IMG/VR virus record: IMGVR_UViG_3300017719_000219
Coordinates: 1-23,124 of that record
DNA: 23,124 bases
Source: a virus
Strand: one strand, 5' to 3'
In this document: in pieces, positions 741 through 23,124 of the stretch
Layout of the letters: each line of letters begins with the position of its first letter
Numbering within the stretch: the stretch's first letter is position 1
Notes under the pieces: model-generated
Told to the model about the DNA's origin: nothing
Databases searched by the model: none
The model's input: the letters and a program-made list of their open reading frames with translations, nothing else
Translations under genes and position numbers: made by a program

Positions 741-1148
741 ATGAGAGACCACACACTAGAGGCAATGCCTTATAAAGGAGAACGACATGAAAAAGCATGG
801 GGTCATGAATTATGGATTATTAATAATGAACTCTATTGTGGTAAATTGTTAGTATTTAAAAAAGATAAATCATTTTCAATGCATTACCACCTGTTAAAAG
901 ATGAAGCATGGTATATTTCTAAAGGAAAATTTTTGTACAAATATATTGATACTGAAGATGCTGAACAGAAATCAATTGAAGTAACAGAAGGTGATTGTAT
1001 ACATTTAATGCCAGGACAACCTCACCAAATGTTGGCTCTTGAAGAAGGAAGTTGTATATTCGAGGTATCAACACAACATTTTGATAGTGATAGTTATAGG
1101 ATAGGAATGGGATCATCACAATTAGAGCCTAAAAAATTACCATTTTAG
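741..1148 (+). CDS. Cupin-domain protein
   Basis: A 135-residue single-domain cupin. Motif 1 is visible as MHYHLLKDEAWYISKGK, with His48, His50 and Glu55 as likely metal ligands. Motif 2 is PGQPHQ, with His95. The segment KAWGHELW before the barrel is typical of small mannose-6-phosphate-isomerase-like cupins. Cupins bind a divalent metal and act as isomerases, dioxygenases or sugar-binding proteins; the fold alone does not give the reaction. The intact ligand set suggests an active metal site. An AGGAG at 720-724 lies about 16 nt before the ATG, too far for a good ribosome site. The same frame has an ATG at 765, but the upstream ATG is kept because it follows the previous stop directly. It sits between two unknown small genes, so sugar or metabolite modification during infection is only a guess. 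Confidence 0.82.
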   Translation: MRDHTLEAMPYKGERHEKAWGHELWIINNELYCGKLLVFKKDKSFSMHYHLLKDEAWYISKGKFLYKYIDTEDAEQKSIEVTEGDCIHLMPGQPHQMLALEEGSCIFEVSTQHFDSDSYRIGMGSSQLEPKKLPF

Positions 1149-2571: not shown

Positions 2572-3145
2572 AAATATTCAAACACTACTTATAGTAGTAT
2601 TAGTTGTGATTATCCTCTTTATGAGAGGTTGTAGTGGGGGGAGTGTAAATACTGAACCTAAAGTTATTACAAAAATAGAAACTAAATGGGACACAATAAC
2701 AATTGTAAAGAATGTTTATGTCCCTAAATGGAAAACTAAAATAATTAAAGAAGTTGATTCTATTTTAATAAATACCCCAATTGATACTTTAGAAATACTT
2801 AAAGATTATTATACTAAAAATGTTTATGTAGATGAAATTAAATTAGATTCATTAGGTGTAGTAACTATAACAGATACAATTTATAAAAATACAATTTGGA
2901 AAAGAGAAGTAAAATCTAATATTTTATTTCCAACTAGATTAATAACTAAAGAGATATACCTTAATAATAGAGAATTTTATTGGGGTATAGGAGCTTCAGG
3001 CCGATCAGACCAAATCAATTATATAGGAGGAGAAATTTTATATAAAGATAAAAAGAAACAAATATACGGTCTAGGTTTAGGGGTTAACCAAGATTTTAAA
3101 CCTGTTATATCAGGTAAATTATATTGGAAAATAGGTAAAAAATAA
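2555..3145 (+). CDS. Membrane-anchored beta-rich protein, spanin-like in layout
   Basis: About 196 residues if translation starts at TTG 2555, overlapping the previous gene by 17 nt. That start gives a classical signal anchor: MKGFFKN, then the hydrophobic stretch IQTLLIVVLVVIILFM. The first in-frame ATG (2621) would delete the whole membrane segment, so TTG is preferred. A Cys follows the anchor (MRGCSGGS), but Arg at -2 makes a lipobox poor. Downstream is a DTI/ITDTIY-rich region that looks extracytoplasmic. The C-terminus (YWGIGASGR ... YGLGLGVNQDF ... LYWKI) has alternating aromatic/glycine strands like small outer-membrane barrels. Short anchored proteins of this layout in Bacteroidota phages are sometimes thought to be spanins. 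Its stop overlaps the terminase start (TAATG). Confidence 0.6.
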   Translation: MKGFFKNIQTLLIVVLVVIILFMRGCSGGSVNTEPKVITKIETKWDTITIVKNVYVPKWKTKIIKEVDSILINTPIDTLEILKDYYTKNVYVDEIKLDSLGVVTITDTIYKNTIWKREVKSNILFPTRLITKEIYLNNREFYWGIGASGRSDQINYIGGEILYKDKKKQIYGLGLGVNQDFKPVISGKLYWKIGKK

Positions 3146-4719
3146 TGAGTCAGGATTTAAAAAAAGTAATAAGACAAGAATATTTAAAATGTGCTAAAGA
3201 CCCAGTTCATTTTATGAAAAAGTATTGTTTTATCCAACACCCTCAAAGAGGTAGAATCCAATTCAACTTATACCCTTTTCAAGAAAAAACTTTACATTTA
3301 CTTAGAGATAACCCCTATTCAATTATATTAAAATCAAGACAATTGGGTATATCAACTTTATCTGCAGGTTATTCCCTATGGTTAATGTTGTTTCATAAGG
3401 ATAAAAATGTGTTATGTATCGCAACTAAACAAGAGACAGCACGTAACATGGTTACTAAGGTAAAATTCATGTATGACAATTTACCATCGTGGTTATCCAT
3501 AAAAGCAGATGAAAATAATAAACTATCACTTAGACTAAAAAATGGATCTATAATTAAAGCCACCTCAGCTTCAAGTGATGCAGGTAGATCTGAAGCCGTA
3601 TCTTTACTACTAGTTGATGAGGCAGCTTTTATTGATAATATTGGAGAAATTTGGGCCTCAGCTCAACAAACATTAGCAACTGGTGGTGGTGCTATTGTAT
3701 TATCTACACCTTATGGTACCGGAAATTGGTTCCATAAAACTTGGGTTAATGCTGAGGCAAATGAAAATCAATTTTTACCTATTAAATTACCATGGTGGGT
3801 TCATCCTGAAAGAAACCAAGAATGGAGAGACTCACAAGATTCATTATTAGGTGATCCTAGATTAGCAGCCCAAGAATGTGATTGTGACTTTAGTACATCT
3901 GGTGATATAGTATTTCATTCTGAATGGATTGATTTCTTACAAGAAACTACTATCCAGGATCCAGTAGAACGTAGGGGTGTTGATCAAAATTTATGGGTTT
4001 GGGAAAATGCAGATTATTCAAGAGAATATATGGTAGTAGCAGATGTTGCTAGAGGAGATGGTAAAGATTTTTCGGCATGTCATGTAATGGATATAGCAAC
4101 TAATACTCAAGTAGCTGAATATAAAGGACAAATGCCCCCAAAAGAATTTGGATTCTTCCTTACAGGATTAGCTACAGAATACAATAATGCAATGTTAGTA
4201 GTTGAAAATGCTAATATTGGATGGGCAACACTAGATGCAATACAAGAAAGAGGATATAGAAATTTATATCAATCCCCAAAATCAGACCAACGTACAGCAG
4301 AATCATATTTAAGAGTATATGAGGGCAATTCAGAAATGGTTCCTGGTTTTACTATGTCAATGAGAACAAGACCACTTTGTATTAATAAATTTAGAGAATT
4401 TGTTGGTGATAAGTCTGTAACAATTCGCTCAAAACGTTTGATAGAAGAAATGAAGGTGTTCATTTGGAGAAATGGAAGACCAGAAGCTCAAAGTGGTTAT
4501 AATGATGACTTGGTTATGTCATTTGGGATTGGTATGTTCCTACGAGACACATCGTTGAAATTTCAACAACAAAGTTTAGATATGGCTAGAGCAGCATTAG
4601 GAAATATAAAATCAAACAAATCATCATATAGTGGTGGTTTTTCAGGTAATAAAGGTGTTAGCAATCCATATGGTATGGATGTTGGGGGTAAAAACGAAAG
4701 CATTAAATGGCTTTTATAA
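3145..4719 (+). CDS. terL: Large terminase subunit (T4 gp17-like)
   Basis: This is the DNA-packaging motor, with an N-terminal ATPase and a C-terminal RNase H-fold nuclease. It is 524 residues, against 610 for T4 gp17. The ATPase shows a Walker A-type loop SRQLGIS (64-70), Walker B LLLVDEAAF (154-162) with catalytic Glu159, and the coupling motif STPYGTGNW (187-195). The nuclease shows VVADVARGDG with Asp300, VVENAN with Glu354, and GYNDDLVMS with Asp454/455, the expected acidic triad. The ATG shares its A with the stop of the preceding gene, indicating coupled translation. The product docks on the portal vertex during head filling, and the portal gene follows 23 nt later behind a promoter-like element. 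The tail sheath and tube genes that lie between terminase and portal in T4 are absent here. Confidence 0.96.
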   Translation: MSQDLKKVIRQEYLKCAKDPVHFMKKYCFIQHPQRGRIQFNLYPFQEKTLHLLRDNPYSIILKSRQLGISTLSAGYSLWLMLFHKDKNVLCIATKQETARNMVTKVKFMYDNLPSWLSIKADENNKLSLRLKNGSIIKATSASSDAGRSEAVSLLLVDEAAFIDNIGEIWASAQQTLATGGGAIVLSTPYGTGNWFHKTWVNAEANENQFLPIKLPWWVHPERNQEWRDSQDSLLGDPRLAAQECDCDFSTSGDIVFHSEWIDFLQETTIQDPVERRGVDQNLWVWENADYSREYMVVADVARGDGKDFSACHVMDIATNTQVAEYKGQMPPKEFGFFLTGLATEYNNAMLVVENANIGWATLDAIQERGYRNLYQSPKSDQRTAESYLRVYEGNSEMVPGFTMSMRTRPLCINKFREFVGDKSVTIRSKRLIEEMKVFIWRNGRPEAQSGYNDDLVMSFGIGMFLRDTSLKFQQQSLDMARAALGNIKSNKSSYSGGFSGNKGVSNPYGMDVGGKNESIKWLL

Positions 4720-6641: not shown

Positions 6642-6648
6642 TTTTAAT

Positions 6649-6664
6649 ATATTTATAAAAAAAT
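6649..6664 (+). promoter_or_regulatory. Promoter-like element P3
   Basis: ATATTTATAA at 6649-6658 followed by an A-run ending AAAAT at 6664, 8 nt before the ATG at 6673. It matches elements P1, P2, P6 and P7. Confidence 0.5.
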
Positions 6665-6672
6665 AAGTATTG

Positions 6673-7539
6673 ATGTATATAAAACACTCAAAGTTTAGGA
6701 ATACAGGTATCCTGTTTGAAGTAATAGTAAGAAAAATTACTTCAGAAACCCTATCAGGCAAAGACTCTCCAGCTATTAATATTCTTAAATCACATTTTGT
6801 TAATACAGAGTTAGGAAAAGAATATAAATTATATGAAACTATCTTTAATTCAAAGGGATTAAATTCTCTTAAAGCAACAGCTGTGTTAGATACAGTTTTA
6901 GAACAATCTACAAAATTAAATAGAACTGTAATTAGAAAAGAAAAATATAGTTTAATAAAATCCTTAAAAGAGCACTACAATGTAGAAGGTTTATTTAAAA
7001 CTAAACTTAATGATTATAAAGCACAAGCATCTTTTTATACTTTAATTGAAACCTATAATACTAAAAAATTAATAGACCCAAATCAAATAATTGATAACAA
7101 AGTAACTCTACTAGAACATTTAACTTCAAAATCAGTAGATAGAGATAATGTAAAAGAAAATGTAATTGAAGAATTTAAGTCTCAAGATAAAGATATTCGT
7201 ACTTTAACATACCATATAATGTTGGAAAAATTTAATGATAAATATTCTTCATTAAATAATAGACAAAAGCTTATCCTTAAAGAATTTATTGAATCCGTAG
7301 ATAACACCCCATCATTAAAAGAATTTTATAATAAAGAAGTTAATTTTATTAAAGAAGAAATTGCTAAACAATTAAAAGTTGTTTCAAGTGAAGTAATTAA
7401 AATTAAGCTAAATGAAGTAAATTCATTAATTAAAGAATTAAATAAAAGAACAGTTATTAATAGTAAGCATTTAGTTGATTTATTGCAATATCATTCATTA
7501 TTAGAAGAATTAAAAAAATCAAATGGGGTACAATTATAA
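6673..7539 (+). CDS. Uncharacterised prohead-region protein
   Basis: A 288-residue, predominantly helical, lysine-rich protein. I start it at ATG 6673; a TTG immediately upstream (6670) would add one residue but is less likely. The N-terminus, MYIKHSKFRNTGILFEVIVRKI, is distinctive and I believe it recurs in other T4-like environmental phages. No enzyme motif is visible. It lies between portal and protease, where T4 has the internal head proteins gp67 and gp68, so a prohead core or assembly role is the natural inference. It is much longer than gp67/gp68 and no homology to them is evident. It overlaps the next gene by 17 nt. Confidence 0.75.
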   Translation: MYIKHSKFRNTGILFEVIVRKITSETLSGKDSPAINILKSHFVNTELGKEYKLYETIFNSKGLNSLKATAVLDTVLEQSTKLNRTVIRKEKYSLIKSLKEHYNVEGLFKTKLNDYKAQASFYTLIETYNTKKLIDPNQIIDNKVTLLEHLTSKSVDRDNVKENVIEEFKSQDKDIRTLTYHIMLEKFNDKYSSLNNRQKLILKEFIESVDNTPSLKEFYNKEVNFIKEEIAKQLKVVSSEVIKIKLNEVNSLIKELNKRTVINSKHLVDLLQYHSLLEELKKSNGVQL

Positions 7540-8326
7540 ACTTAAAGAAGTAAAAGTTGGTGATGTGGATGTAGCTGGTGGAGTAAAATCTACAGTAACA
7601 GATATAGACCCTGAAACCGGTGGTATAACTTGGGATGTTGATTATATTCCAAATGTAGGAGAATTAGTAAAAGATATTAATGGGTTAACTAAAACAGCAA
7701 AAGAAGTTGCTGTTAAAGTTAAAAATGATCCTAAATTTAGAAATATCTATGATGATACTAAATTATTAAGAAATAAAATTCGAACTCATGTTCGTAACAA
7801 TTACCCAGAAGAATATAGAAAAGCTGTAGGTGTTAGTGAAGCCGATTTAGATGAAATGTCTACAACTGGTGGAGGAGCAGGTGCTGCTTCATTTACAGGT
7901 GGTACAGGAATGCAATATGCAACCCCATACGCATTTAAAAAAACAAAAAAACAAAAATTACCTGAATCTAATAACCCTGGAAGAGATTTAGGCCCAGGTC
8001 CTAAAGCAAGTGAAGATGGGGTTAAAGATAATACTTATGTAAAGCAATTTGGTTACAAATTAGTACCAAAAAAAATTAAAGGGTCCGGTTTAGAAGTTAA
8101 ACAATTATTTGAAGATAGTGATGTAAAATCATTCCAACAAGAAAGAATATCATCATTTGATGTAATTGAACAACAACTTAATGATATTTATAAAATGTTG
8201 AGCAATGCTAAAAATGAAACCAGTGATTACTACACACAAAATCCTAGTTCATTTAATGTAATTAAACCAACAGATTTAGTTTTAGACTATATAAAAGACA
8301 TAAAAGACTTATTAAAAGGAGAATAA
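7523..8326 (+). CDS. Uncharacterised prohead-region protein with capsid-like Gly/Thr motif
   Basis: A 267-residue protein whose ATG lies inside the end of the previous gene. Residues 1-110 are charged and probably helical (LLRNKIRTHVRNNYPEEYRK). Residues 111-128 form a striking low-charge segment (EMSTTGG, GAASFTGGTG, MQYATPYAF), followed by a basic linker (KKTKKQK). The C-terminal 100 residues are helical and acidic. The central segment resembles the region just after the predicted maturation cleavage of the capsid protein encoded at 11622 (TGG ... FTPGTGAQWA). That suggests an internal prohead protein processed by, or displayed like, the capsid protein. No T4 equivalent is recognisable. A chance ATATTTATAA at 8184 lies inside the coding sequence. 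Confidence 0.75.
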   Translation: MGYNYKLKEVKVGDVDVAGGVKSTVTDIDPETGGITWDVDYIPNVGELVKDINGLTKTAKEVAVKVKNDPKFRNIYDDTKLLRNKIRTHVRNNYPEEYRKAVGVSEADLDEMSTTGGGAGAASFTGGTGMQYATPYAFKKTKKQKLPESNNPGRDLGPGPKASEDGVKDNTYVKQFGYKLVPKKIKGSGLEVKQLFEDSDVKSFQQERISSFDVIEQQLNDIYKMLSNAKNETSDYYTQNPSSFNVIKPTDLVLDYIKDIKDLLKGE

Positions 8327-9664
8327 ATGAAAACATTACAAGAACAATACAACCAAATTAAAAAAGGAAAAGGTAGTAAAGAAATTTTCCTTAAAGAAGT
8401 TAAAGCTAAGTACCCTAATTTAGTACGTAATGCTGCAGGGTTTAATGAAGCCTCCTCAGTACTAATTAATAGAAGTATTATAGCAGAAAATATTCATGTA
8501 GCTACAGGCTCAAATGAAAAACCAGATTGGTTTCAATTATTTGATAAAAACATGAATTTAATTTCAGAAGAAGAAGCTAAAGCTATTGAAAAGAAAGTAA
8601 CTAAAGGAGTAACTGATTTACAAGCCCCTGATAGAGGATATGATTATAAAGATGATAAAGCTCTCAATAATGTATCTGGTGAGCAATTTCGTCAAGGATA
8701 TTTTACAGAGTTAACAGATGTAGCTAATGCAGATAAAACTAAAGAAGAACTAATTGATTTAGTTATTAAAAACATTAGTAAGAATCCTTTATATTATGTT
8801 GAAGAAGCTCAATTTGGAATTAAAGGAATAGGCTACACAGAAGAAGCCCCAGCTTTAGGTAAAGGAAAAATGATTAAAGATCCAGGTGTAGGTGGAGGTT
8901 ATGGCGCTGAAACTAAAAAAGACTTCCCAGAAGGTGAAGTAGGTACTGGTTATTTAGAAATTAAAGAAAATAAAAACACAACAAATATGATATCATTATT
9001 AGACTTATATGAAAGCGGTCCTTTAGGAGAAAAAGAATTACCTAAGAAAAAAGCTAAAAAAGTAAAAAAAGAAACAACAGATAGTAAATTAGCTGAAATT
9101 GAAAAAAATGGTAGAGTAGCTACTTTGGAATTACAAATTGAAGCCTTAGAAGAAATTATTGAAGGTAAAAATGGTAGAATTGCTATGGTTACTGAAGATG
9201 ATAGTTTATCTGAATTAGTTGATAAGAAAAAAATGAAAGAAATGCAACGCGAAGTAAAACTTTTAGAAAAGAAAAAAGCGGGCATGGAAAGAATGTATGA
9301 GAAGATGTGTGGTAAATCTTACACCAAGAAAGAAATGGTAGACGAAGTGGATGTTGTTAATGAATTATTTGGTATGGGTGGAAGTACTAAACTACAATCA
9401 CTCCAACCCTTTACTATTGAATTTGCAGATCAAGATACATTAAAACTTGTTATGCAATCTCCACTTTTTGCTAAAGGTGATAAAGGTGAAAGAGTTACAT
9501 TCAGGCAAAATGAAGTAGTAGTTGGAAAACCTTTGAGTTTTGAGCTCAAAAATAGCATCAAAGGGGGTACATCAAATGTTACAAAAATAACTTCTTTAGG
9601 TAAAGATATCAAGAAGTTAAATGTAAAAGATTTAAAAAAAGGTCAGTACAGGATCAAATACTAA
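8327..9664 (+). CDS. Uncharacterised prohead-region protein with coiled coil
   Basis: A 445-residue protein starting directly after the previous stop, with AAAAGGAGA just upstream of ATG 8327. This is one of the few good Shine-Dalgarno sites in the window. The N-terminus (EVKAKYPNLVRNAAGFNEAS) is a short helical domain. A basic, Lys/Glu-rich coiled coil occupies roughly residues 240-335 (KKKAKKVKKETTDSKLAEIE ... MKEMQREVKLLEKKKAGMER). The C-terminal 90 residues appear to be a beta-rich domain (FTIEFADQDTLKLVM; KGERVTFRQNEVVV). The gene ends 10 nt before the prohead protease start. Its place and coiled coil fit an internal head or core component; I do not recognise the family. Confidence 0.75.
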   Translation: MKTLQEQYNQIKKGKGSKEIFLKEVKAKYPNLVRNAAGFNEASSVLINRSIIAENIHVATGSNEKPDWFQLFDKNMNLISEEEAKAIEKKVTKGVTDLQAPDRGYDYKDDKALNNVSGEQFRQGYFTELTDVANADKTKEELIDLVIKNISKNPLYYVEEAQFGIKGIGYTEEAPALGKGKMIKDPGVGGGYGAETKKDFPEGEVGTGYLEIKENKNTTNMISLLDLYESGPLGEKELPKKKAKKVKKETTDSKLAEIEKNGRVATLELQIEALEEIIEGKNGRIAMVTEDDSLSELVDKKKMKEMQREVKLLEKKKAGMERMYEKMCGKSYTKKEMVDEVDVVNELFGMGGSTKLQSLQPFTIEFADQDTLKLVMQSPLFAKGDKGERVTFRQNEVVVGKPLSFELKNSIKGGTSNVTKITSLGKDIKKLNVKDLKKGQYRIKY

Positions 9665-11621: not shown

Positions 11622-13274
11622 ATGAGTCAATTAAATTCTCTTTTAGAAAGTGCTAATCCTTACAAGTCGTTACAAAGTGATGCGGCTAGATTAGCAAACA
11701 AATGGAATAAGACAGGTTTGTTAGAAGGTATCGGAAGCGAAACTGAAAAAAACAATATGTCTCTTATTCTTGAAAACCAAGCTAAGCAATTAGTTATGGA
11801 AGAAAGTAATACAGGAGGTCCACTTCCTGGAGCTGGTACATTTACTCCTGGTACAGGAGCACAATGGGCTGGAGTTGCTTTACCATTAGTAAGAAAAGTA
11901 TTTGGACAAATAGCAGCGAAAGAATTCGTTTCTGTACAACCAATGAACTTACCTTCTGGTCTAGTATTTTACTTAGATTTCCAATATGGAACTACAAAAA
12001 CACCATTCGCAGCTGGTGAGTCACTATATGGTGATACTGATGGAAATACTCCATTTGGTAACGGTGCTACAGGTGGTCTTTACGGAGCTGGACGTTTCGG
12101 ATATTCAATTAATAACACACAATCAGCTGCTGAATCAGATCCTACAAACTTTGTAACAGATGCAAAAACAGATGTTGATTGGTTTGCTGATTTACAAGCT
12201 GATTCTTCAGTATCTGCATCTTACGCAGCTGGAGAAATTTCATTAGTAGCAATTGATCTTACAGATCTTCCTAACTATGACACTAGAGCTGTAAAAGGAT
12301 TTTATTTAGTAGATGGTACATCAACTGCTCCTGTAGTAGCTGAACAATATCCTCAATTTACAAAAATTGATGGTACTAAATTAAATTTCTATGTAAATAA
12401 TACAAATTTAGCTGATGCTGAAACATTTAATGTTGAGTATTTACTACAAACAAATGACGCTCAAAGAGGTGATTTTGAAGATGGTAACATTAACTTAAAT
12501 GCTGATAATGCTACAATTTCAATTCCAGAAATCAACATTCAAATGCAGTCAGAAGCAATTGTTGCTAAGACTCGTAAATTGAAAGCAGTTTGGACTCCTG
12601 AGTTTGCTCAAGATTTAAATGCTTACCATTCTTTGGATGCTGAAGCTGAATTAACTTCAATTATGAGTGAGTATATCTCATTAGAAATTGATTTAGAAAT
12701 TCTTGATATGTTAATCGAATCTGCATCTGCTGGTACTGAGTACTGGAGTGCACAGAATAACTTATCATTAGCTTCAACTGGTATTGTTGATGCCGATTTA
12801 GGTTTCTACAACTCACAAGGACAGTGGTTCCAAACTTTAGGAACTAAAATGCAGAAATTGAGTAACATTATTCACCAGAAAACATTAAGAGGTGGAGCTA
12901 ATTTTATGGTATGTTCTCCAACAGTAGCTACTATTATCGAATCTATCCCAGGATTTGCTAGTACTTCTGACGGTGATGCTGCTAAAATGAGCTACGCATT
13001 TGGTGTACAAAAAGCTGGTACTGTTAATTCAAGATATACTGTTTACAAGAACCCATACATGACTGAAAATACCATTTTAATGGGCTTTAGAGGTGGACAA
13101 TTCTTAGAAGCAGGTGCTGTATTTGCTCCATATATTCCGTTAATTATGACTCCATTAGTATACGATCCAGAAACATTTACACCACGTAAAGGTTTACTTA
13201 CTCGTTATGCTAAGAAAGTAGTAAGACCAGAATTCTATGGTAAGATCTTCGTAGAAGGATTAAACACTCTATAA
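11622..13274 (+). CDS. 23: Major capsid protein (T4 gp23-like)
   Basis: The main shell protein: 550 residues, against 521 for T4 gp23. The N-terminal 60 residues form a charged propeptide. QLVMEESNTGG (56-66) is where T4 gp23 is cut, after a glutamate, so cleavage after Glu60 or Glu61 is predicted. Next come a Gly/Thr-rich segment (FTPGTGAQWAG) and the diagnostic LPLVRKVFGQIAAKEFVSVQ and PMNLPSG. Further conserved blocks are KTRKLKAVWTPEFAQDLNAY, the helix LTSIMSEYISLEIDLEILDM, and GGANFMVCSPTVATIIESI. Residues about 120-280 vary more between relatives and contain the extra length. An A-rich leader precedes the ATG. The stop codon lies inside a perfect hairpin and a strong terminator follows. 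Confidence 0.96.
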   Translation: MSQLNSLLESANPYKSLQSDAARLANKWNKTGLLEGIGSETEKNNMSLILENQAKQLVMEESNTGGPLPGAGTFTPGTGAQWAGVALPLVRKVFGQIAAKEFVSVQPMNLPSGLVFYLDFQYGTTKTPFAAGESLYGDTDGNTPFGNGATGGLYGAGRFGYSINNTQSAAESDPTNFVTDAKTDVDWFADLQADSSVSASYAAGEISLVAIDLTDLPNYDTRAVKGFYLVDGTSTAPVVAEQYPQFTKIDGTKLNFYVNNTNLADAETFNVEYLLQTNDAQRGDFEDGNINLNADNATISIPEINIQMQSEAIVAKTRKLKAVWTPEFAQDLNAYHSLDAEAELTSIMSEYISLEIDLEILDMLIESASAGTEYWSAQNNLSLASTGIVDADLGFYNSQGQWFQTLGTKMQKLSNIIHQKTLRGGANFMVCSPTVATIIESIPGFASTSDGDAAKMSYAFGVQKAGTVNSRYTVYKNPYMTENTILMGFRGGQFLEAGAVFAPYIPLIMTPLVYDPETFTPRKGLLTRYAKKVVRPEFYGKIFVEGLNTL

Positions 13275-14156: not shown

Positions 14157-15470
14157 ATGGCATCTATACTAACTCCATCTTCATTCCAAATTAAAATTAA
14201 GGAGGAACACGTAGTTAAAGGTATAAAAACTACAAATGAAACTTTTAATACATTAAGTAATATTACTAATGTAGATAGAAGAATAGTAACTATACCAGCA
14301 TCTACTTCAATTGATTTAATTAATGTTAATGGTGTAAACCCTTCAGCTGGTACTTTCCCCTCAAGTAGCATGAAATATGCTAGAATTACTAATTTAGATA
14401 CAGAATCTTCTTTAGCAGTTTCATTTACATCTTCAAAATCCCCAGATGGGCAAGGTGTTATTGGGACTGATTTAACTTCATCTTATGATAGTGGGGGAAT
14501 AGGAGGAGTAACAGGATTATATTTAGGAGTTGAAACAACTTCTAGTTTTAGTGGGTCAGGTATGACGTTAGATATTGATATATCATCGTCTTTAATTGAT
14601 AATAATGTAATTGTTGTATCCTCTAATGCTACAAATTGTGCTACTGGTACATACGAAGTCTCTCTGAGTGGGGGGACGGGAACTGAAGCAACTGCTACTG
14701 TAGTAGTAACAGGAGCTAACCCAGAAGCCCCTACAGTTTCAAGTATAACCGTTTTAAATAGTGGAAGAGGTTATGTTGTTGGAGACGTGTTAACAATCGC
14801 CTCAGGTGATTTAGGGACAGGACAATTAGTAAATGGGGTAGCATTAACTAATAACGGTTTAACACCAACAGTAACCAATGATATAACACGAGAAGTAGCA
14901 GTTTATACTTCAACAGGTCAAGGAGCTACAGTTAATGTAGTATCTGTTGGGGGTGTAATTACAACTGTAACTCCTGTAAATATAGGAACAGGGTATGAAG
15001 CAGCTCAAGTAATTACTATTACAGATGCCCAATTAACAAATTTAGGATTTGGAGTAGTAAGTTCAGATTATACTACAACATTACAAGTTGGAGATGTGCA
15101 AGATTCATCAGTAGTAACTTTAACAGCACTTGATTCAAGTAATATAACAACAGGTATATTTCAAGCAAAAATAGCAACATCAGGTACAGGGTATGTAGTA
15201 GGTGAAACTTTAACAGTAGATGGCAGCAATATAGGAAATGCTTCAGATGCTTTATTTACTTTAACATTAAATGATTTCACAGAAAATGGAGCAAGAAGTT
15301 ATTGGACGATGGACGTATTACCCACATCATCTCTAATGTTTTCAAGTCCTCAAGTTACAGGAAGTACATTTAACGGCTTCTTTGAACAAGATATAGAATT
15401 TATTTCTGTATATGCCGAAACAGAAAGAATGGATGTTGAGTATGTAGTAGTTAATTCAGATAACGTATAA
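14157..15470 (+). CDS. Beta-rich virion protein with internal G-x-G-Y repeat insertion
   Basis: A 437-residue, beta-rich, Ser/Thr/Gly-rich protein without a membrane segment. The two ends look like parts of one compact domain: residues 1-95 (SFQIKIKEEHVV ... RRIVTIPAS ... YARITNLDTESSLAVSF) and 375-437 (DVLPTSSLMFSS ... FEQDIEFISVYAETERMDVEY). Between them, roughly residues 120-375, are three degenerate repeats built on 'G-x-G-Y-x-x-G-[DE]-x-L-T-[IV]': NSGRGYVVGDVLTIASG (201-217), NIGTGYEAAQVITITD (275-290) and TSGTGYVVGETLTVDG (341-356). Such repeats are common in phage surface and fibre proteins. It lies between phoH and the neck genes, so a head-decoration, collar or neck-fibre role is plausible. 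No T4 homologue is recognised. Confidence 0.72.
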   Translation: MASILTPSSFQIKIKEEHVVKGIKTTNETFNTLSNITNVDRRIVTIPASTSIDLINVNGVNPSAGTFPSSSMKYARITNLDTESSLAVSFTSSKSPDGQGVIGTDLTSSYDSGGIGGVTGLYLGVETTSSFSGSGMTLDIDISSSLIDNNVIVVSSNATNCATGTYEVSLSGGTGTEATATVVVTGANPEAPTVSSITVLNSGRGYVVGDVLTIASGDLGTGQLVNGVALTNNGLTPTVTNDITREVAVYTSTGQGATVNVVSVGGVITTVTPVNIGTGYEAAQVITITDAQLTNLGFGVVSSDYTTTLQVGDVQDSSVVTLTALDSSNITTGIFQAKIATSGTGYVVGETLTVDGSNIGNASDALFTLTLNDFTENGARSYWTMDVLPTSSLMFSSPQVTGSTFNGFFEQDIEFISVYAETERMDVEYVVVNSDNV

Positions 15471-16645: not shown

Positions 16646-17242
16646 ATGGCACTATTTGGAGGAGCAAGAGATATAAGTCTATTTAGACATTTAAATAGGG
16701 AATTGATGGCTGACATCATTACCCAACAATGTTCTTTCTATAAATTTAAATTAGAAGAAACTAAAGTAAACATATATGGAGAAGCAGCTGAAGAAAAATT
16801 TTACATGGGTCCTGTTTTACTTAATTGTTTAATTGAAAGACCTAATGAAGACTTCCCAGAAACAGATTTAGGAACAGATTTTACATGGGGTGCTACTTTT
16901 AAATTCTTAAGAGATGATTTATTAAACAAAATGGAAGATTTTAATGCTGATTTTGCTCCTACAAATTATCAATATGGTGCAGATTTAGTTCCTGAAGTTG
17001 GAGATATCATTTTATATAATGAAGGGTATTATGAAGTAGATAATGTAAATGCTAATCAATATTTTATGGGTAAAAACCCTGATTATCCAAATTCTCCTCA
17101 ATTACAAAACCCAGGTTTAGAGAACTTTGGCTCATCAATTTCTATTATTTGTGAAACTCATTATGTACCAGCAGATAAGGTAGGAATTACACAAGAAAGA
17201 TTATATACTGGAAACAATTCAAACCCATCACTAAATGGCTAA
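16646..17242 (+). CDS. 14: Neck protein (T4 gp14-like)
   Basis: A 198-residue protein (T4 gp14 is 256). The N-terminus, ISLFRHLNRELMADIITQQC then FYKFKLEETKVNIYGEA, and the segment FYMGPVLLNCLIERP are characteristic of T4-type gp14 neck proteins. So is PEVGDIILYNEGYYEVDNVN, with its 'PxxGDxIxxxxxxxEV' pattern. gp14 joins gp13 at the head-tail junction after DNA packaging. It is translationally coupled on both sides: 1 nt after the gp13-type stop and overlapping the next gene by 8 nt. No oddities are seen apart from being shorter than T4's. Confidence 0.85.
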   Translation: MALFGGARDISLFRHLNRELMADIITQQCSFYKFKLEETKVNIYGEAAEEKFYMGPVLLNCLIERPNEDFPETDLGTDFTWGATFKFLRDDLLNKMEDFNADFAPTNYQYGADLVPEVGDIILYNEGYYEVDNVNANQYFMGKNPDYPNSPQLQNPGLENFGSSISIICETHYVPADKVGITQERLYTGNNSNPSLNG

Positions 17243-18188
17243 AAGAGGAAAAATACCAACACCTAAAACTCAAAGAGAGATTTTAAATTCTCAAATTGAA
17301 CCTTATAACCCTCCTGCAGGGTCACCTGGTTTTTCCGAAACTGGTAATCCTAATGATGCCGGTACTCTAAATAGAGGAGAACAAATTTCATTTAGAGATG
17401 ATACTACAAAACCCTTTACATTAGGGATTAAAGATATTGATGAAGCTATTGCTTATTACATGGAGGAAGTAATTAAACCTACAGTAATACAAAATGGTAC
17501 AGTTCAACAAGTCCCTTTTATATATGGTTCTCCTGAAAGATGGAAGCAAGTTCAAAAAGATGGTTATTATAGGGATAAAAAAGGTAAAATTATGTTACCT
17601 TTAATTACATTCAAACGTAATAATATTGAAAAAGTTAGAAATGTAGCTAATAAATTAGATGCAAATAACCCCCATAATGTAAGTATTTTCCAAAAACAGT
17701 ATAGTGTTGGTAATGCTTATGATAATTTTTCTTTATTAAATAATAAAAGACCTCAAAAAATTAATTATGCTGTAGTTGTTCCTGATTATGTTAATATAAC
17801 TTATGATTTTATTATTGCTACTTATTATATAGAGCAATTAAATAAAATAGTAGAAGCTATAAACTATGCATCAGATTCATATTGGGGTAACCCTGAAAGA
17901 TATCAATTTAGAGCCCGAATAGATAGTTTTGCAACCCCAGTACAAGTAGAACAAAAAGGAGAAAGATCTGTTAAAGCAACCTTTTCTCTAAAACTATATG
18001 GATATTTAGTTCCAGATACAGTACAAAAACAACTCAATGCAGTGAAGAAATTTAATACACCCACACAAATTACATTTAATATGGAAACCGTACGAAGTAT
18101 AGATCAAATATTTGAAGCTGAACAAAATTCACAACCCTCTATCCCAAGTAAAAACAATTTTACAAACTTTGAAGATTCTAAACAATAA
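17235..18188 (+). CDS. 15: Tail completion / sheath stabiliser protein, probable T4 gp15-like
   Basis: A 317-residue protein (T4 gp15 is 272). Its ATG lies inside the last codons of the gp14-type gene. The first 65 residues are Pro/Asn/Gly-rich and probably extended. The block IKDIDEAIAYYMEEVIKPTV, then VPFIYGSPERWKQVQ and KIMLPLITFKRN, follows the gp15 pattern 'I..AI.YYM...I.P......VP..Y..PE.W......K....P.I.F'. The second half contains PDYVNITYDFIIATYYIEQL and YLVPDTVQKQLN, consistent with the same fold. gp15 forms the hexameric ring that caps the tail and binds the gp13/gp14 neck, which fits the gene order 13-14-15. The assignment is good but made by pattern alone. Confidence 0.7.
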   Translation: MAKRGKIPTPKTQREILNSQIEPYNPPAGSPGFSETGNPNDAGTLNRGEQISFRDDTTKPFTLGIKDIDEAIAYYMEEVIKPTVIQNGTVQQVPFIYGSPERWKQVQKDGYYRDKKGKIMLPLITFKRNNIEKVRNVANKLDANNPHNVSIFQKQYSVGNAYDNFSLLNNKRPQKINYAVVVPDYVNITYDFIIATYYIEQLNKIVEAINYASDSYWGNPERYQFRARIDSFATPVQVEQKGERSVKATFSLKLYGYLVPDTVQKQLNAVKKFNTPTQITFNMETVRSIDQIFEAEQNSQPSIPSKNNFTNFEDSKQ

Positions 18189-18222: not shown

Positions 18223-21200
18223 ATGGGATTAATTTTAAGAAATATTAAAGGTTCTGAGTTAACTTGGACAGAAGTAGATGGAAATTTTTCCCAACTATTA
18301 TACGATGTTGCCCTTTCAGGAGCTCAATTACAATTTTATACTAACAACGGAGTAGATGATGTTTTAAAAAGAACAATAGATTTATCCCAAGTTCCAGGAT
18401 TTGCTGGAGTTACTGTTATGAATAATGGCACCCCAGTTTTAACAGGTGTTACAGAATTAAACTTTTTTGGAGCTGGTATTGCTAGTATAACACCTGATGG
18501 TGGTATTAAAGTTGATATTGAAATCGAGGGAGGAGGCAGTGGACTTGGTTTCCCATATACAGGATCAGCACAAATTACAGGATCTTCAGTTAATGGGCAA
18601 CCTGGTGGGTTTGCGGTAACAGGTAGTTCTTTCTTTGATATAACAGGAACAGGTGAAAAATTTTCAATAGGGGGTTTAAATGTAGAAGATAGACCTCAAA
18701 TTTTAACTTATGATCCTACAACGGGTAAAGTAGGATATGTAGATGTAACAAGTGGTACAAGTGGGTTTAGAGGATCTAATGGTACAGCTGGTGTAAGTGG
18801 TACTTCAGGAACATCAGGTTCCTCAGGTACATCAGGTGATGATGGTACTTCAGGGTTAAGTGGTGTTGTTGGTTCTTCAGGTTCAGATGGTTCCTCAGGT
18901 ACATCTGGTGATGATGGAACAAGTGGATTAAGTGGAGAGAGTAAAACCTCAGGTTCTTCAGGTTCTTCAGGTACTTCGGGTGACGAAGGTACAGCAGGAC
19001 TTAGTGCCTTAAGCGCAACTTCAGGAACATCAGGCTCACAAGGAACATCAGGAGATGAAGGTACAAGCGGATTAAGCAATACTTCAGGCTCAAGTGGTTC
19101 AGCAGGATCTACAGGTACTTCAGGAGATGCGGGTCAATCAGGTTTAAGTAACACTTCAGGTTCCTCAGGTACATCAGGTGATGATGGTACTTCAGGTGAA
19201 AGTACTTTAAGTAACACTTCAGGTTCAAGTGGTTCAAGTGGTACATCAGGTGATGAAGGTACAGCAGGAGAAAGTAATACAAGTAACACTTCAGGTTCTT
19301 CAGGGTCAAATGGTACCTCAGGTGATGAAGGCACAGCAGGGCTTAGTGCTCTAAGCGCAACTTCAGGAACATCAGGCTCACAAGGAACATCAGGAGATGA
19401 AGGTACAAGTGGGTTAAGCAATACTTCAGGCTCAAGTGGTTCAGGAGGTTCAAATGGTACATCAGGTGACGCAGGTCAATCAGGATTAAGTAATACCTCA
19501 GGTTCTTCAGGTACCTCAGGTGATGATGGGACTTCAGGAATAAGTGGAGAAAGTAAAACATCAGGTTCTACAGGTTCAAGTGGTACATCAGGTGATGAAG
19601 GTACAGCAGGGGAAAGTGCTTCAAGTAATACTTCAGGTTCAAGTGGATCAAATGGTACCTCAGGTGATGAAGGTACAGCAGGGCTTAGTGCTTTAAGTAA
19701 CACTTCAGGATCTTCAGGATCTTCAGGTACATCAGGTGATGAGGGTACAAGCGGATTAAGTAATACTTCAGGATCAAGTGGTTCAGCAGGATCTACAGGT
19801 ACATCAGGAGATGCAGGTCAATCAGGTTTAAGTAATACAAGCGGTTCATCCGGTACCTCAGGTGATGATGGAACTTCAGGTGAAAGTACTTTAAGTAATA
19901 CCTCAGGTTCAAGTGGTTCTTCAGGTACATCAGGTGATGATGGTACAGCAGGAGAAAGCACTTCAAGTAATACATCAGGTTCTACAGGATCTTCAGGTAC
20001 ATCAGGTGATGATGGTACTTCAGGTGAAAGTGCTTCAAGTAATACATCAGGCTCTACAGGTTCAAGTGGTACATCAGGTGACGAAGGTACAGCAGGACTT
20101 AGTGCTTTAAGTGCAACATCAGGTTCAGGGGGTTCTTCAGGTACTTCAGGTGACGCAGGTCAATCAGGATTAAGTAATACCTCAGGTTCATCAGGTACAT
20201 CAGGTGATGATGGAACAAGTGGGTTAAGTGGTTCATCTGAATCTTCAGGTTCTTCAGGATCAAGCGGTACGTCTGGTGATGAAGGCACAGCAGGAGAAAG
20301 TAATATAAGTAATACATCTGGATCTACAGGTTCAAGTGGTACATCAGGTGATGAAGGTACAGCAGGGTTAAGTAATGTAAGTGCAACTTCAGGTTCTTCA
20401 GGATCAAATGGTACAAGTGGTGATTTTGGTACTAATGGGGAAAGTAATACAAGTTCAACTTCAGGCTCAAGTGGGTCTTCAGGATCTACAGGTACATCAG
20501 GAGATGCAGGTCAATCAGGATTAAGTAATACCTCAGGTTCTTCAGGTACCTCAGGTGATGATGGTACTTCAGGAGAAAGTGGATTATCTGAATCTTCAGG
20601 TTCAAGTGGTTCCTCAGGTACATCAGGTGATGACGGTACAGCAGGAGCTAGTACATCTAGTAATACATCAGGATCTTCAGGATCTTCAGGTACATCAGGT
20701 GATGATGGTACTTCAGGTGAAAGTGCTTCAAGTAATACATCAGGCTCTACAGGTTCAAGTGGTACAAGTGGAGAGGATGGAACAAGCGGAGAAAGTGCTT
20801 CAAGTAACACTTCAGGTTCCTCAGGATCTTCAGGTACATCTGGTGATGACGGGACTTCAGGAGAAAGCGCTTTAAGTAACACTTCAGGTTCTACAGGTTC
20901 AAGTGGTACAAGTGGGGATGATGGTACAAGTGGAGAAAGTGGTTCTTCAGAAACATCAGGTTCAAGTGGTTCTTCAGGATCTACAGGTACATCAGGTGAC
21001 GCAGGTCAATCAGGGTTAAGTAATACCTCAGGTTCTTCAGGTACATCTGGTGATGATGGAACAAGTGGGTTAAGTGGAGAAAGTAAAACCTCAGGTTCTA
21101 CAGGTTCAAGTGGTACTTCAGGTGATGACGGTACAGCAGGAGCTAGTACATCTAGTAATACATCAGGCTCAAGTGGTTCTTCAGGTACATCAGGTGATGA

Positions 21201-23124
21201 AGGTACAGCAGGAGAAAGTGCTTCAAGTAATACATCAGGTTCAAGTGGTTCCTCAGGTACTTCAGGAGATGATGGTACAAGTGGGTTAAGTGGAGAGAGT
21301 AAAACCTCAGGTTCTACAGGTTCAAGTGGTACAAGTGGAGATGATGGAACAAGCGGAGAAAGTGCTTCAAGTAATACATCAGGTTCTTCAGGATCAAGCG
21401 GTACGTCTGGTGATGAAGGCACAGCAGGGCTTAGTGCTTCAAGTAATACATCAGGTTCAAGTGGTTCAGGAGGTTCATCAGGTACATCAGGAGATGCAGG
21501 TCAATCAGGTTTAAGTAATACAAGTGGTTCATCAGGTACTTCAGGTGATGACGGAACAAGTGGAGAAAGCGGTTTATCTGAATCCTCAGGTTCTTCAGGA
21601 TCTTCAGGAACATCAGGTGATGATGGTACAGCAGGAGAAAGTAATGTAAGTGCTACCTCAGGTTCTACAGGTTCAAGTGGTACTTCAGGTGATGAAGGTA
21701 CAGCAGGAGAAAGTGCTTCAAGTAATACATCAGGTTCAAGTGGTTCTTCAGGTACATCAGGTGATGATGGGACAGCAGGAGCTAGTACATCTAGTAACAC
21801 CTCAGGTTCTACAGGTTCAAGTGGTACAAGTGGAGATGATGGAACAAGCGGAGAAAGTGCTTCAAGTAATACATCAGGTTCAAGTGGTTCCTCAGGTACT
21901 TCAGGAGATGATGGGACAGCAGGAGAAAGTAACATAAGTGCAACATCAGGTTCAGGAGGTTCTTCAGGTACTTCAGGTAACGCAGGTGTAGCAGGTTCAA
22001 GTAATGTAAGTGCAACATCAGGTTCAGGAGGTTCAAGTGGTACAAATGGAGATGCAGGTGTAGCAGGAGAAAGTAATGTGAGCGCAACATCAGGATCAGG
22101 AGGTTCTTCAGGTACTTCAGGAGACGCAGGTGTAGCAGGTTCAAGTAATGTAAGTGCAACATCAGGTTCAAGTGGTTCAAGCGGTACTAATGGTGATGCA
22201 GGTCAATCAGGATTAAGTAATACAAGTGGTTCATCAGGTACCTCAGGTGATGATGGTACTTCAGGAATAAGTGGAGAGAGTAAATCATCAGGTTCTACAG
22301 GTTCATCAGGTACCTCAGGTGGCGAAGGTACAGCAGGGCTTAGTGCTTTAAGCGCAACTTCAGGATCAGGAGGTTCTTCAGGTACTTCAGGAGACGCAGG
22401 TGTAGCAGGTTCAAGTAATGTAAGTGCAACATCAGGTTCAAGTGGTTCAAGTGGTACAAATGGAGATGCAGGTATAGCAGGAGCTAGTAACATAAGCGCA
22501 ACCTCAGGTTCAGGAGGATCAAGCGGTACATCAGGTAATGCTGGTGTAGCAGGAGAAAGTAATGTAAGTGCTACCTCAGGTTCAGGAGGATCAAGTGGTA
22601 CTTCAGGAGACGCAGGTGTAGCAGGAGAAAGTAACATAAGCGCAACATCAGGTTCAGGAGGATCAAGTGGTACTTCAGGTAATGCGGGAGCAAGTGCTTC
22701 AAGTGATACAAGCGGTTCATCAGGTTCCTCAGGTACATCAGGTGATGACGGTACAGCAGGAGCTAGTACATCTAGTAATACATCAGGATCTTCAGGATCT
22801 TCAGGTACATCAGGAGATGCAGGTACAGCAGGGCTTAGTGCTTTAAGCGCAACTTCAGGTTCAGAAGGTTCTTCAGGTACTTCAGGAGACGCAGGTGTAG
22901 CAGGTTCAAGTAATGTAAGTGCTACTTCAGGATCAGGAGGTTCTTCAGGTACTTCAGGTAACGCAGGTGTAGCAGGAGAAAGTAACATAAGCGCAACATC
23001 AGGTTCAGGAGGATCAAGTGGTACTTCAGGTAATGCTGGTGATGCGGGAGCAAGTGCTTCAAGTAATACATCAGGTTCAAGTGGTTCAAGCGGTACTAAT
23101 GGTGATGCCGGTCAATCAGGTTTA
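18223..23124 (+). CDS. Giant collagen-like (Gly-X-Y) virion fibre protein, 3' end outside window
   Basis: The frame is open from ATG 18223 to the window end: at least 1634 codons with no stop. Residues 1-177 are non-repetitive. They begin GLILRNIKGSELTWTEVDGN, an N-terminal signature seen in phage tail and fibre proteins ('KGspLTWxEvDxNF'), followed by a beta-rich segment (IASITPDGGIKVDIEIEGGG). From residue 178 onward glycine, or a single substitute, occupies every third position for about 485 triplets without a register shift. X and Y are mainly Ser and Thr, with a recurrent acidic triplet GDD/GDE/GDA. No proline occurs after residue 166 and aromatic residues are almost absent. This is collagen-like in spacing but not in composition. 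Triple-helical fibre and polyglycine-II bundle are both possible folds. It probably forms a virion appendage; receptor binding would depend on the unseen C-terminus. Confidence 0.9.
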   Translation, partial: MGLILRNIKGSELTWTEVDGNFSQLLYDVALSGAQLQFYTNNGVDDVLKRTIDLSQVPGFAGVTVMNNGTPVLTGVTELNFFGAGIASITPDGGIKVDIEIEGGGSGLGFPYTGSAQITGSSVNGQPGGFAVTGSSFFDITGTGEKFSIGGLNVEDRPQILTYDPTTGKVGYVDVTSGTSGFRGSNGTAGVSGTSGTSGSSGTSGDDGTSGLSGVVGSSGSDGSSGTSGDDGTSGLSGESKTSGSSGSSGTSGDEGTAGLSALSATSGTSGSQGTSGDEGTSGLSNTSGSSGSAGSTGTSGDAGQSGLSNTSGSSGTSGDDGTSGESTLSNTSGSSGSSGTSGDEGTAGESNTSNTSGSSGSNGTSGDEGTAGLSALSATSGTSGSQGTSGDEGTSGLSNTSGSSGSGGSNGTSGDAGQSGLSNTSGSSGTSGDDGTSGISGESKTSGSTGSSGTSGDEGTAGESASSNTSGSSGSNGTSGDEGTAGLSALSNTSGSSGSSGTSGDEGTSGLSNTSGSSGSAGSTGTSGDAGQSGLSNTSGSSGTSGDDGTSGESTLSNTSGSSGSSGTSGDDGTAGESTSSNTSGSTGSSGTSGDDGTSGESASSNTSGSTGSSGTSGDEGTAGLSALSATSGSGGSSGTSGDAGQSGLSNTSGSSGTSGDDGTSGLSGSSESSGSSGSSGTSGDEGTAGESNISNTSGSTGSSGTSGDEGTAGLSNVSATSGSSGSNGTSGDFGTNGESNTSSTSGSSGSSGSTGTSGDAGQSGLSNTSGSSGTSGDDGTSGESGLSESSGSSGSSGTSGDDGTAGASTSSNTSGSSGSSGTSGDDGTSGESASSNTSGSTGSSGTSGEDGTSGESASSNTSGSSGSSGTSGDDGTSGESALSNTSGSTGSSGTSGDDGTSGESGSSETSGSSGSSGSTGTSGDAGQSGLSNTSGSSGTSGDDGTSGLSGESKTSGSTGSSGTSGDDGTAGASTSSNTSGSSGSSGTSGDEGTAGESASSNTSGSSGSSGTSGDDGTSGLSGESKTSGSTGSSGTSGDDGTSGESASSNTSGSSGSSGTSGDEGTAGLSASSNTSGSSGSGGSSGTSGDAGQSGLSNTSGSSGTSGDDGTSGESGLSESSGSSGSSGTSGDDGTAGESNVSATSGSTGSSGTSGDEGTAGESASSNTSGSSGSSGTSGDDGTAGASTSSNTSGSTGSSGTSGDDGTSGESASSNTSGSSGSSGTSGDDGTAGESNISATSGSGGSSGTSGNAGVAGSSNVSATSGSGGSSGTNGDAGVAGESNVSATSGSGGSSGTSGDAGVAGSSNVSATSGSSGSSGTNGDAGQSGLSNTSGSSGTSGDDGTSGISGESKSSGSTGSSGTSGGEGTAGLSALSATSGSGGSSGTSGDAGVAGSSNVSATSGSSGSSGTNGDAGIAGASNISATSGSGGSSGTSGNAGVAGESNVSATSGSGGSSGTSGDAGVAGESNISATSGSGGSSGTSGNAGASASSDTSGSSGSSGTSGDDGTAGASTSSNTSGSSGSSGTSGDAGTAGLSALSATSGSEGSSGTSGDAGVAGSSNVSATSGSGGSSGTSGNAGVAGESNISATSGSGGSSGTSGNAGDAGASASSNTSGSSGSSGTNGDAGQSGL
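19135..20511 (+). repeat. Super-repeat block with 342-nt period
   Basis: The marker codons for QSGL (DNA caatcagg) fall at 19135, 19477, 19819, 20161 and 20512. That gives three exact 342-nt intervals (114 aa) and one of 351 nt (117 aa). Copies 1 and 2 have the same order of sub-modules (GDDGTSG, GDEGTAGES, GDEGTAGLSALS, GDEGTSGLS, GDAG). Copy 3 replaces two of these with GDD forms. Confidence 0.9.
20512..23112 (+). repeat. Longer super-repeats of 495, 495, 702 and 909 nt
   Basis: The same QSGL marker recurs at 20512, 21007, 21502, 22204 and 23113, giving intervals of 495, 495, 702 and 909 nt. All are multiples of 9. The two last steps each add exactly 207 nt (69 aa), as if blocks of modules had been inserted. 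Confidence 0.88.
21940..23060 (+). repeat. 72-nt repeat subfamily (GVAG / SATSGSGG type)
   Basis: Units of exactly 72 nt (24 aa, eight triplets) carry GVAG, then [EG]S-N[VI]S-ATS, then GSGGSSGTSG[DN]A. The GVA-position codon falls at 21988, 22060 and 22132; at 22402, 22474, 22546, 22618 and 22690; and at 22897, 22969 and 23041, in three runs with perfect 72-nt steps. This subfamily is absent from the first 3.1 kb of the tract. Confidence 0.9.

What the first reader, a model, noticed from the sequence alone, without database searches (positions are those of the whole stretch)
18754..23124. About 485 Gly-X-Y triplets in a single unbroken register, without proline
The distance from the first to the last glycine codon checked is an exact multiple of 9 nt. 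Where glycine is missing (NTS, ATS, ALS, ASS, KTS, TLS) it is substituted, never inserted or deleted, so the register survives every interruption. Strong selection on phase is implied. Classic collagens use proline; here the tract has none and is Ser/Thr with a phased acidic triplet. If it were a triple helix at about 0.29 nm per residue, the visible part alone would be about 420 nm long, far beyond a T4 long tail fibre. Fold and function are inference.
Basis: partly seen in the sequence, partly recalled or inferred. Interest (0 to 1): 0.75.

Follow-up and report, generated by a model that had tools for sequence, protein, structure and literature searches.

The report
Giant proline-free collagen-like phage fibre
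A marine T4-like phage encodes a roughly half-micrometre-long collagen-like fibre that contains no proline, and the genes just downstream include a close relative of an enzyme that attaches sugars to serine, suggesting (untested) that the serine-rich fibre is sugar-coated.

Summary
Window 18754-23124 is one open frame with all triplets in one phase and no proline, but 386 of 486 triplets start with Gly. The other 100 are in-phase substitutions spaced every 8 triplets (24 residues), not random losses.

The contig ends inside the gene. A second IMG/VR contig (L113) matches its last 615 nt at 100%. Joined, the gene encodes 2321 aa: a 177-aa N-terminal domain, 659 triplets (517 Gly, 0 Pro) and a 167-aa C-terminal domain like an annotated Immutovirus tail fibre. 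Dozens of related T4-like contigs carry the same fibre at the same place; complete ones reach 4977 aa.

New here: downstream lies a conserved cassette of glycosyltransferases, an FkbM-type methyltransferase and an autotransporter-type serine O-heptosyltransferase (TibC/AAH family, 321 bits against a 200 cut-off, catalytic and iron-finger residues kept). The cassette glycosyltransferase has a collagen tract upstream in 40 of 40 contigs with at least 5 kb upstream. Ten relatives lacking the fibre lack the cassette at that locus.

Best reading: a long tail-associated fibre whose Ser-rich Gly-X-Ser tract is O-glycosylated by co-encoded enzymes. Glycosylation, trimer and triple helix are inferred, not shown.

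The parts
18223..18753 (+). N-terminal domain (aa 1-177) of the fibre; its first ~60 residues (MGxILRxxKGSELTxxEVDxNF...) are a conserved module
   Evidence: Shared with relatives L002, L018, L064, L079, L072 and others; no Pfam or PHROG match; AlphaFold2 model uninformative, pLDDT 32.5
18754..23124 (+). Collagen-like tract, first 486 of 659 triplets, one phase, no Pro, 24-residue periodic loss of Gly
   Evidence: Pfam PF01391 E 6e-107
22510..23124 (+). 615-nt end that is identical to the start of contig L113 (IMGVR_UViG_3300017746_000093), which holds the rest of the gene (to L113:2679) and the cassette (L113:2692-9534)
   Evidence: 615/615 identity, dovetail, no 93-mer repeated in the joined tract
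17235..18188 (+). Conserved 317-aa virion-region neighbour (T4 gp15-like by position only), the upstream boundary of the fibre cassette
   Evidence: At least 415 relatives in IMG/VR; 46% identity to Flavobacterium phage immuto
15481..17242 (+). Neck-region proteins of 387 aa and 198 aa upstream; the first matches a head-tail adaptor family
   Evidence: phrog_211 E 3e-12 for the 387-aa protein; 198-aa protein unnamed
11622..13274 (+). Major capsid protein gp23-like: T4-like phage
   Evidence: PF07068 E 1.6e-76
3145..4719 (+). Terminase large subunit, T4-type
   Evidence: PF03237 E 1.4e-12, phrog_2 E 5.5e-51

Best explanation
The ORF is the first two thirds of a 2321-aa tail-associated fibre of a T4-like phage, probably of Flavobacteriales. 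The short conserved N-terminal module would attach it to the virion, the 659-triplet Gly-X-Y tract would be a very long, thin, probably trimeric stalk, and the C-terminal domain would be the distal tip. The fibre is made as a module with its own sugar-adding machinery: a TibC/AAH-type O-heptosyltransferase would attach the first sugar to serines (Ser fills 69% of Y positions), two other glycosyltransferase genes would extend the glycan and an FkbM-type methyltransferase would cap it. Sugars on Ser could supply the hydration and stiffness that proline/hydroxyproline gives ordinary collagen, or shield the fibre, and the regular Gly-free sites every 24 residues could be hinges or preferred acceptor sites. 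Shown: sequence, register, full gene, cassette and its association. Inferred: virion location, trimer, triple helix, glycosylation, host. Rough likelihoods: virion fibre 0.85, glycosylated by the cassette 0.65, a triple helix over most of its length 0.5.
For: Tract and register. Full gene through a 615-nt identical overlap. C-terminal domain 40% identical to that of relative L018 and 34% to Immutovirus gp047 'tail fiber protein' (also for L018). Relative L095 ends in Peptidase_S74 (E 1.2e-19), a domain known to mature homotrimeric phage fibres (own knowledge). Complete relatives of 2291-4977 aa. Cassette on the window's own continuation: BAHT TIGR04414 321.4 bits (cut-off 200) and PDB TibC E 6.7e-60; GT with PF00534; second GT4; FkbM methyltransferase 73.6 bits (cut-off 37.7). 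Catalytic Asp110 and Lys230, Arg286, Trp305 and iron-finger Cys339/342/358/370 of TibC (PMC4358343) are kept in the alignment. A GT query that contains no collagen finds a collagen tract upstream in 62/65 loci (>=1.5 kb upstream) and 40/40 (>=5 kb); 10 fibre-less relatives have none of the cassette there; 8/8 against 0/10 complete intervals, Fisher 2.3e-5, not corrected for kinship. Distant Mel-JY01 has BAHT and collagen; Immuto has neither. TibC modifies Ser, not Thr, and one mapped site is T-N-T-S322 (PMC4358343); NTS is the commonest Gly-free triplet here (42 of 142).
Against: No proline, and about 22% of triplets without Gly, would destabilise a classic triple helix. AlphaFold2 gave no usable model and trimers could not be modelled. 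Known BAHT substrates are beta-helical autotransporters, not collagens; megaphage LR756504 has a BAHT but no collagen. TibC donor-selecting Pro300 is Gly here, so the sugar is unknown, and no clear heptose pathway was found in the phages. The cassette association is partly shared ancestry. The window and L113 are two metagenome contigs, so they may be two strains of one population. The N-terminal domain has no family match.
Confidence: 0.62

Rival explanations
1. The tract is not a collagen triple helix but a glycosylated, extended or polyglycine-II-like chain (mucin-like stalk or antiparallel bundle), in which six-triplet segments are separated by Gly-free hexapeptides acting as turns or hinges.
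For: No proline, Ser/Thr-dominated X and Y, Gly-free pairs every 24 residues; lag-8 period in 29 of 49 non-redundant tracts; glycosyltransferases next door.
Against: Gly-free triplets are substituted in phase rather than replaced by loops of free length, which a helix explains better; relative L009 has 98% Gly over 1569 triplets with no proline and the same locus; an E. coli prophage collagen is a proven trimer (PMC3368898), though that one is not proline-free.
Confidence: 0.35
2. The cassette enzymes act on something else: the host surface (superinfection exclusion), another phage fibre, or phage DNA; the fibre is an unmodified collagen-like protein.
For: Phage glycosyltransferases often modify DNA or host glycans (PMC12619734); a second fibre-like protein lies in the cassette of several relatives; LR756504 has a BAHT without collagen.
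Against: The initiating enzyme belongs to a protein-Ser O-glycosyltransferase family typically encoded next to its substrate (PMC4358343); cassette and fibre are gained or absent together; Immuto keeps two GT4 genes elsewhere but no BAHT.
Confidence: 0.2
3. Assembly or repeat artefact: the tract is chimeric or collapsed.
For: The contig ends inside the repeat; many IMG/VR contigs break there.
Against: Longest exact repeat 92 nt, none at 93; a second contig agrees over 615 nt; many relatives have complete ORFs without stops.
Confidence: 0.05
4. Phase is kept passively: 72- or 63-nt units spread by recombination, so no selection on triplet phase is needed.
For: Units of 7 or 8 triplets only; some relatives shift phase.
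Against: Synonymous sites are diversified while Gly codons never change at positions 1-2 within the six Gly-X-Y columns; most relatives keep one phase over hundreds to >1500 triplets.
Confidence: 0.25

Closest known systems
Phage collagen-like tail fibres (EPclA-D of E. coli O157:H7 prophages, PMC3368898; PHROGs 5073, 6320, 1806)
   Same: Gly-X-Y stalk between an N-terminal domain and a C-terminal tip in a phage tail-region gene; PHROG tail-fibre profiles hit the tract
   Different: Here no proline, 659 triplets, 24-residue period of Gly loss, no match of the end domains to those families, and a glycosylation cassette; EPclA was found unglycosylated when expressed
Bacterial autotransporter heptosyltransferases (TibC, AAH; TIGR04414; PDB 4RAP)
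   Same: The cassette enzyme matches over its length with the catalytic base and iron-finger cysteines kept; Ser-specific family
   Different: Encoded by a phage next to a collagen-like fibre, not an autotransporter; the donor-selecting Pro300 position is Gly
Mimivirus collagens with their own collagen glucosyltransferase (PMC9546862)
   Same: A virus encoding both a collagen-like protein and a collagen-modifying glycosyltransferase
   Different: Mimivirus modifies hydroxylysine with a different enzyme; here the predicted target is Ser and the virus is a phage
Immutovirus (Flavobacterium phage vB_FspM_immuto)
   Same: Same virion gene order and homologous neighbours; its gp047 tail fibre shares the C-terminal domain
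   Different: No collagen tract and no BAHT anywhere in the genome
Glycosylated bacterial collagens (e.g. Bacillus BclA, own knowledge) and the prokaryotic collagens reviewed in PMC8968730
   Same: Hydroxyproline-free Gly-X-Y repeats rich in Thr/Ser
   Different: Those carry about 19% Pro at X on average (PMC8968730); here 0%, and Ser rather than Thr dominates Y

Membership tests
Collagen-like repeat (Pfam PF01391) | Gly every third residue over many triplets, above Pfam's cut-off | tested here: met
   349.9 bits against 27.2; 79% of triplets carry Gly
Collagen-like repeat (Pfam PF01391) | Proline-rich X/Y positions | tested here: not met
   0 Pro in 486 triplets of the window and 659 of the full gene; hence called collagen-like, not collagen
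Collagen-like repeat (Pfam PF01391) | Three-chain triple helix | not testable with these tools
   No trimer prediction offered; the monomer model was uninformative
Phage tail fibre | Encoded in the virion/tail gene block of a tailed phage | tested here: met
   Follows gp23- and head-tail-adaptor-like genes; relatives and L113 continue to sheath and tube
Phage tail fibre | End domains homologous to known fibres or a trimerising chaperone | tested here: met
   C-terminal domain 34% identical to Immutovirus gp047 'tail fiber'; Peptidase_S74 in relative L095; N-terminal domain without match
Phage tail fibre | Present on virions | not testable with these tools
   Needs virion proteomics or microscopy
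Autotransporter heptosyltransferase (BAHT, TIGR04414) | Score above the curated cut-off | tested here: met
   321.4 bits against 200 for L113:8335-9531; 336 for L097
Autotransporter heptosyltransferase (BAHT, TIGR04414) | Catalytic Asp110, Lys230, Arg286, Trp305 and four iron-finger Cys | tested here: met
   All kept in the phmmer alignment to TibC 4RAP; Thr226 is Ser, Pro300 is Gly
Autotransporter heptosyltransferase (BAHT, TIGR04414) | Encoded beside an autotransporter substrate (usual, not obligatory) | tested here: not met
   Beside a collagen-like fibre instead; so a sequence member of the family, with a different presumed substrate
Autotransporter heptosyltransferase (BAHT, TIGR04414) | Transfers heptose to Ser | not testable with these tools
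   Needs an enzyme assay
Glycosyltransferase family 25 (PF01755, includes animal collagen galactosyltransferases) | C-terminal domain of the ~900-aa GT scores above Pfam's cut-off | tested here: inconclusive
   26.5 and 24.7 bits against 24 in two relatives, 18.2 in the window's own continuation; no PDB match

The most novel reading that the evidence does not exclude
A widespread group of aquatic phages makes a collagen without proline by using serine O-heptosylation, with a phage-borne autotransporter-type heptosyltransferase, as the chemical substitute for hydroxyproline, and the 24-residue Gly-free sites (NTS, NVS, ATS) are the programmed acceptor or hinge positions.
Probability: 0.25. Interest if true: 0.88.

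Novelty: new variant of a known kind. Interest (0 to 1): 0.68.

Why it matters
Phage collagen-like fibres are known, but a giant proline-free one bound genetically to a protein-Ser O-glycosyltransferase cassette is, as far as ten literature searches of the open library showed, not described. If true it would show a second chemical route to stabilise or functionalise a Gly-X-Y stalk, give a ready genetic system (enzyme plus substrate in one cassette) to test whether glycosylated serine can replace proline in collagen, extend the BAHT family to phages with a new substrate class, and add fibres of 0.5 to 1.3 micrometres to what phages may use to reach hosts.

Tried and rejected
AlphaFold2 on the N-terminal domain plus tract start (12 sequences) and on the C-terminal end of relative L018 (4 sequences): pLDDT 32.5 and 33.0; no fold search was run on such models. 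N-terminal domain against Pfam, PHROGs and the annotated phages: no match. ~900-aa GT profile and its C-terminal third against the PDB: nothing significant. Heptose-nucleotide pathway in the phages: only a short cytidylyltransferase-like protein, below the ADP-heptose synthase cut-off, so the donor sugar is left open. N-X-S sequons (NTS, NVS, NIS) were considered as N-glycosylation sites and set aside: Ser is general at Y, and no N-oligosaccharyltransferase was seen among the cassette genes (not searched for elsewhere). Long antisense Pro-rich ORFs over the tract were judged by-products of the repeat composition. One call failed for an over-long region and two for frame errors.

Full report
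WHAT IS THERE. The window is a 23124-nt IMG/VR virus record with a T4-type terminase, a gp21-type prohead protease, gp23-type capsid protein, PhoH, a head-tail-adaptor-like protein and, last, ORF 18223-23124 (+), which runs off the contig end. From aa 178 it is a Gly-X-Y tract of 486 triplets in a single phase, with 386 Gly, no proline, Ser at 347 of the Y positions and Thr or Ser at 315 of the X positions. Pfam Collagen scores 349.9 bits. Shuffling never brings more than 42% of Gly into one phase (observed 97%).

THE CORRECTION. One hundred triplets lack Gly, and they are ordered: usually six Gly-X-Y triplets followed by two Gly-free ones, for example GSS GSS GTS GDD GTS GES ASS NTS. Units are 8 (45) or 7 (14) triplets, so length changes come in whole triplets. 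The lag-8 signal is a family trait: in 29 of 49 non-redundant tracts, the window included, the strongest autocorrelation of Gly-free triplets is at exactly 8 triplets. Phase is not sacred everywhere: L060 and L064 change phase several times. Synonymous sites are diversified and Gly codons never change at positions 1-2 in the six Gly columns, so the protein pattern is under selection, but unit duplication by itself also preserves phase.

THE MISSING END. A pattern from the last bases of the window finds IMG/VR contig 3300017746_000093 (L113/L190). Window 22510-23124 equals L113 1-615 without a mismatch, end to end, while the longest exact repeat in the tract is 92 nt. The joined ORF is 2321 aa: 177-aa N-terminal domain, 659 triplets (517 Gly, 0 Pro; 660 Ser; Ser at 456 of 659 Y positions) and a 167-aa C-terminal domain. 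At 0.286 nm per residue the tract would be about 565 nm long if triple-helical. The join rests on two metagenome contigs and could combine two strains of one population.

RELATIVES. A search with the 317-aa upstream neighbour gives 415 relatives, 80 fetched. Most of those that extend past it carry a collagen-like ORF next. Complete ones measure 2291, 2467, 2542, 3007, 3938 and 4977 aa; the last has 1569 triplets, 98% Gly, no Pro. Over 21114 triplets in 49 non-redundant tracts only 188 Pro occur and Ser fills 63% of Y. End domains vary: a C-terminal domain shared by several relatives, by the window's own protein and by Immutovirus gp047 'tail fiber protein', or a Peptidase_S74 chaperone (L095). 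Host: the nearest isolate is a Flavobacterium phage, and two contigs binned in Flavobacteriales genomes hold the same module, so Flavobacteriales is likely but unproven.

THE CASSETTE. In L113, directly after the fibre, come a methyltransferase-like gene (189 aa, weak match), a 234-aa gene, a 904-aa glycosyltransferase (PF00534; its C-terminal third resembles GT25, the family of animal collagen galactosyltransferases, above Pfam's cut-off in two relatives but not here), a 319-aa GT4, an FkbM methyltransferase (73.6 bits, cut-off 37.7), a 399-aa protein of TIGR04414 (321.4 bits, cut-off 200), an 83-aa gene, then sheath and tube. The 399-aa protein aligns with crystal-structure TibC at E 6.7e-60, keeping Asp110, Lys230, Arg286, Trp305 and the four iron-finger cysteines; Thr226 is Ser and Pro300 is Gly (residue roles from PMC4358343).

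ASSOCIATION TEST. Using the ~900-aa GT, which contains no collagen, as the query gives 79 loci. A collagen tract lies upstream on the same strand in 62 of 65 with at least 1.5 kb upstream, 50 of 51 with 3 kb and 40 of 40 with 5 kb; in 78 of 78 loci reaching the sheath the second GT and the heptosyltransferase are present before it. Ten relatives in which the 317-aa neighbour is followed by the sheath without a collagen fibre have none of these genes in the interval, and none of eight such contigs nor the whole Immuto genome has a TIGR04414 match. For whole intervals: 8 of 8 against 0 of 10 (Fisher 2.3e-5), which is not corrected for common descent. Outside the clade, Microcystis phage Mel-JY01 and megaphage LR756501 have both BAHT and collagen tracts, Immuto has neither, and LR756504 has a BAHT without collagen.

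MECHANISM. Proposed steps: (1) the N-terminal module anchors the protein to the virion (inferred from conservation and position); (2) three chains trimerise, helped by the C-terminal domain or, in L095, an S74 chaperone (inferred); (3) the tract forms a long stalk, with Gly-free sites every 24 residues as hinges or acceptor sites (inferred); (4) the BAHT glycosylates Ser, and the GTs and FkbM enzyme extend and methylate the glycan (inferred from family membership and association). A lead, not a test: TibC modifies Ser but not Thr, and one of its two mapped sites in TibA is T-N-T-S322 (PMC4358343); NTS is the commonest Gly-free triplet here (42 of 142). Against: known BAHT substrates are beta-helices, the donor sugar is uncertain, and structure prediction failed.

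KNOWN OR NEW. Collagen-like phage fibres (PMC3368898) and viruses with their own collagen glycosyltransferases (mimivirus, PMC9546862) are known; bacterial collagens average 19% Pro at X (PMC8968730). The searches found no report of a proline-free phage collagen tied to an autotransporter-type heptosyltransferase; the library is open-access only. Filed as a new variant of a known kind.

Noticed in passing
Microcystis phage Mel-JY01 PP395634.1, 29-2170 (+); L183: Collagen-like frame of about 1000 aa on the + strand, where the deposited annotation places hypothetical genes on the other strand (1-651 and 739-2298): probable mis-annotation.
   Followed up: partly
LR756501.1 (735 kb megaphage), e.g. 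103533-110705, 400407-418213: Several giant collagen-like ORFs (1665-3488 aa) plus a BAHT at 580171-581325 in one uncultured megaphage.
   Followed up: no
L004:9603-16238 (-) and minus-strand ORFs over the window tract: Very long proline-rich antisense ORFs (to 2229 aa) over the repeat; most likely a composition by-product.
   Followed up: no
window 741-1148: Cupin protein with a match to D-lyxose isomerase (PF07385 27.5 bits, cut-off 20.8): a possible sugar-metabolism gene in the same phage.
   Followed up: partly
window 14157-15470: 437-aa virion-region protein with repeated 'GxGYxxGxxLT' motifs, weak match to phrog_6005 virion structural protein; unexplained.
   Followed up: no
L111, L112, L098, L101, L184 (576-583 aa forms); Mel-JY01 4750-8430: The heptosyltransferase is fused to a methyltransferase-like domain in some relatives, and lies in a 1226-aa protein annotated FkbM methyltransferase in Mel-JY01.
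   Followed up: partly
G003:C1:68066-68449, G006:C1:43421-43804, G028:C1:124421-124804: Stand-alone cytidylyltransferase-like protein resembling the ADP-heptose synthase C-domain (about 100-112 bits, cut-off 181.5), present in fibre-bearing genomes, absent from Immuto.
   Followed up: partly
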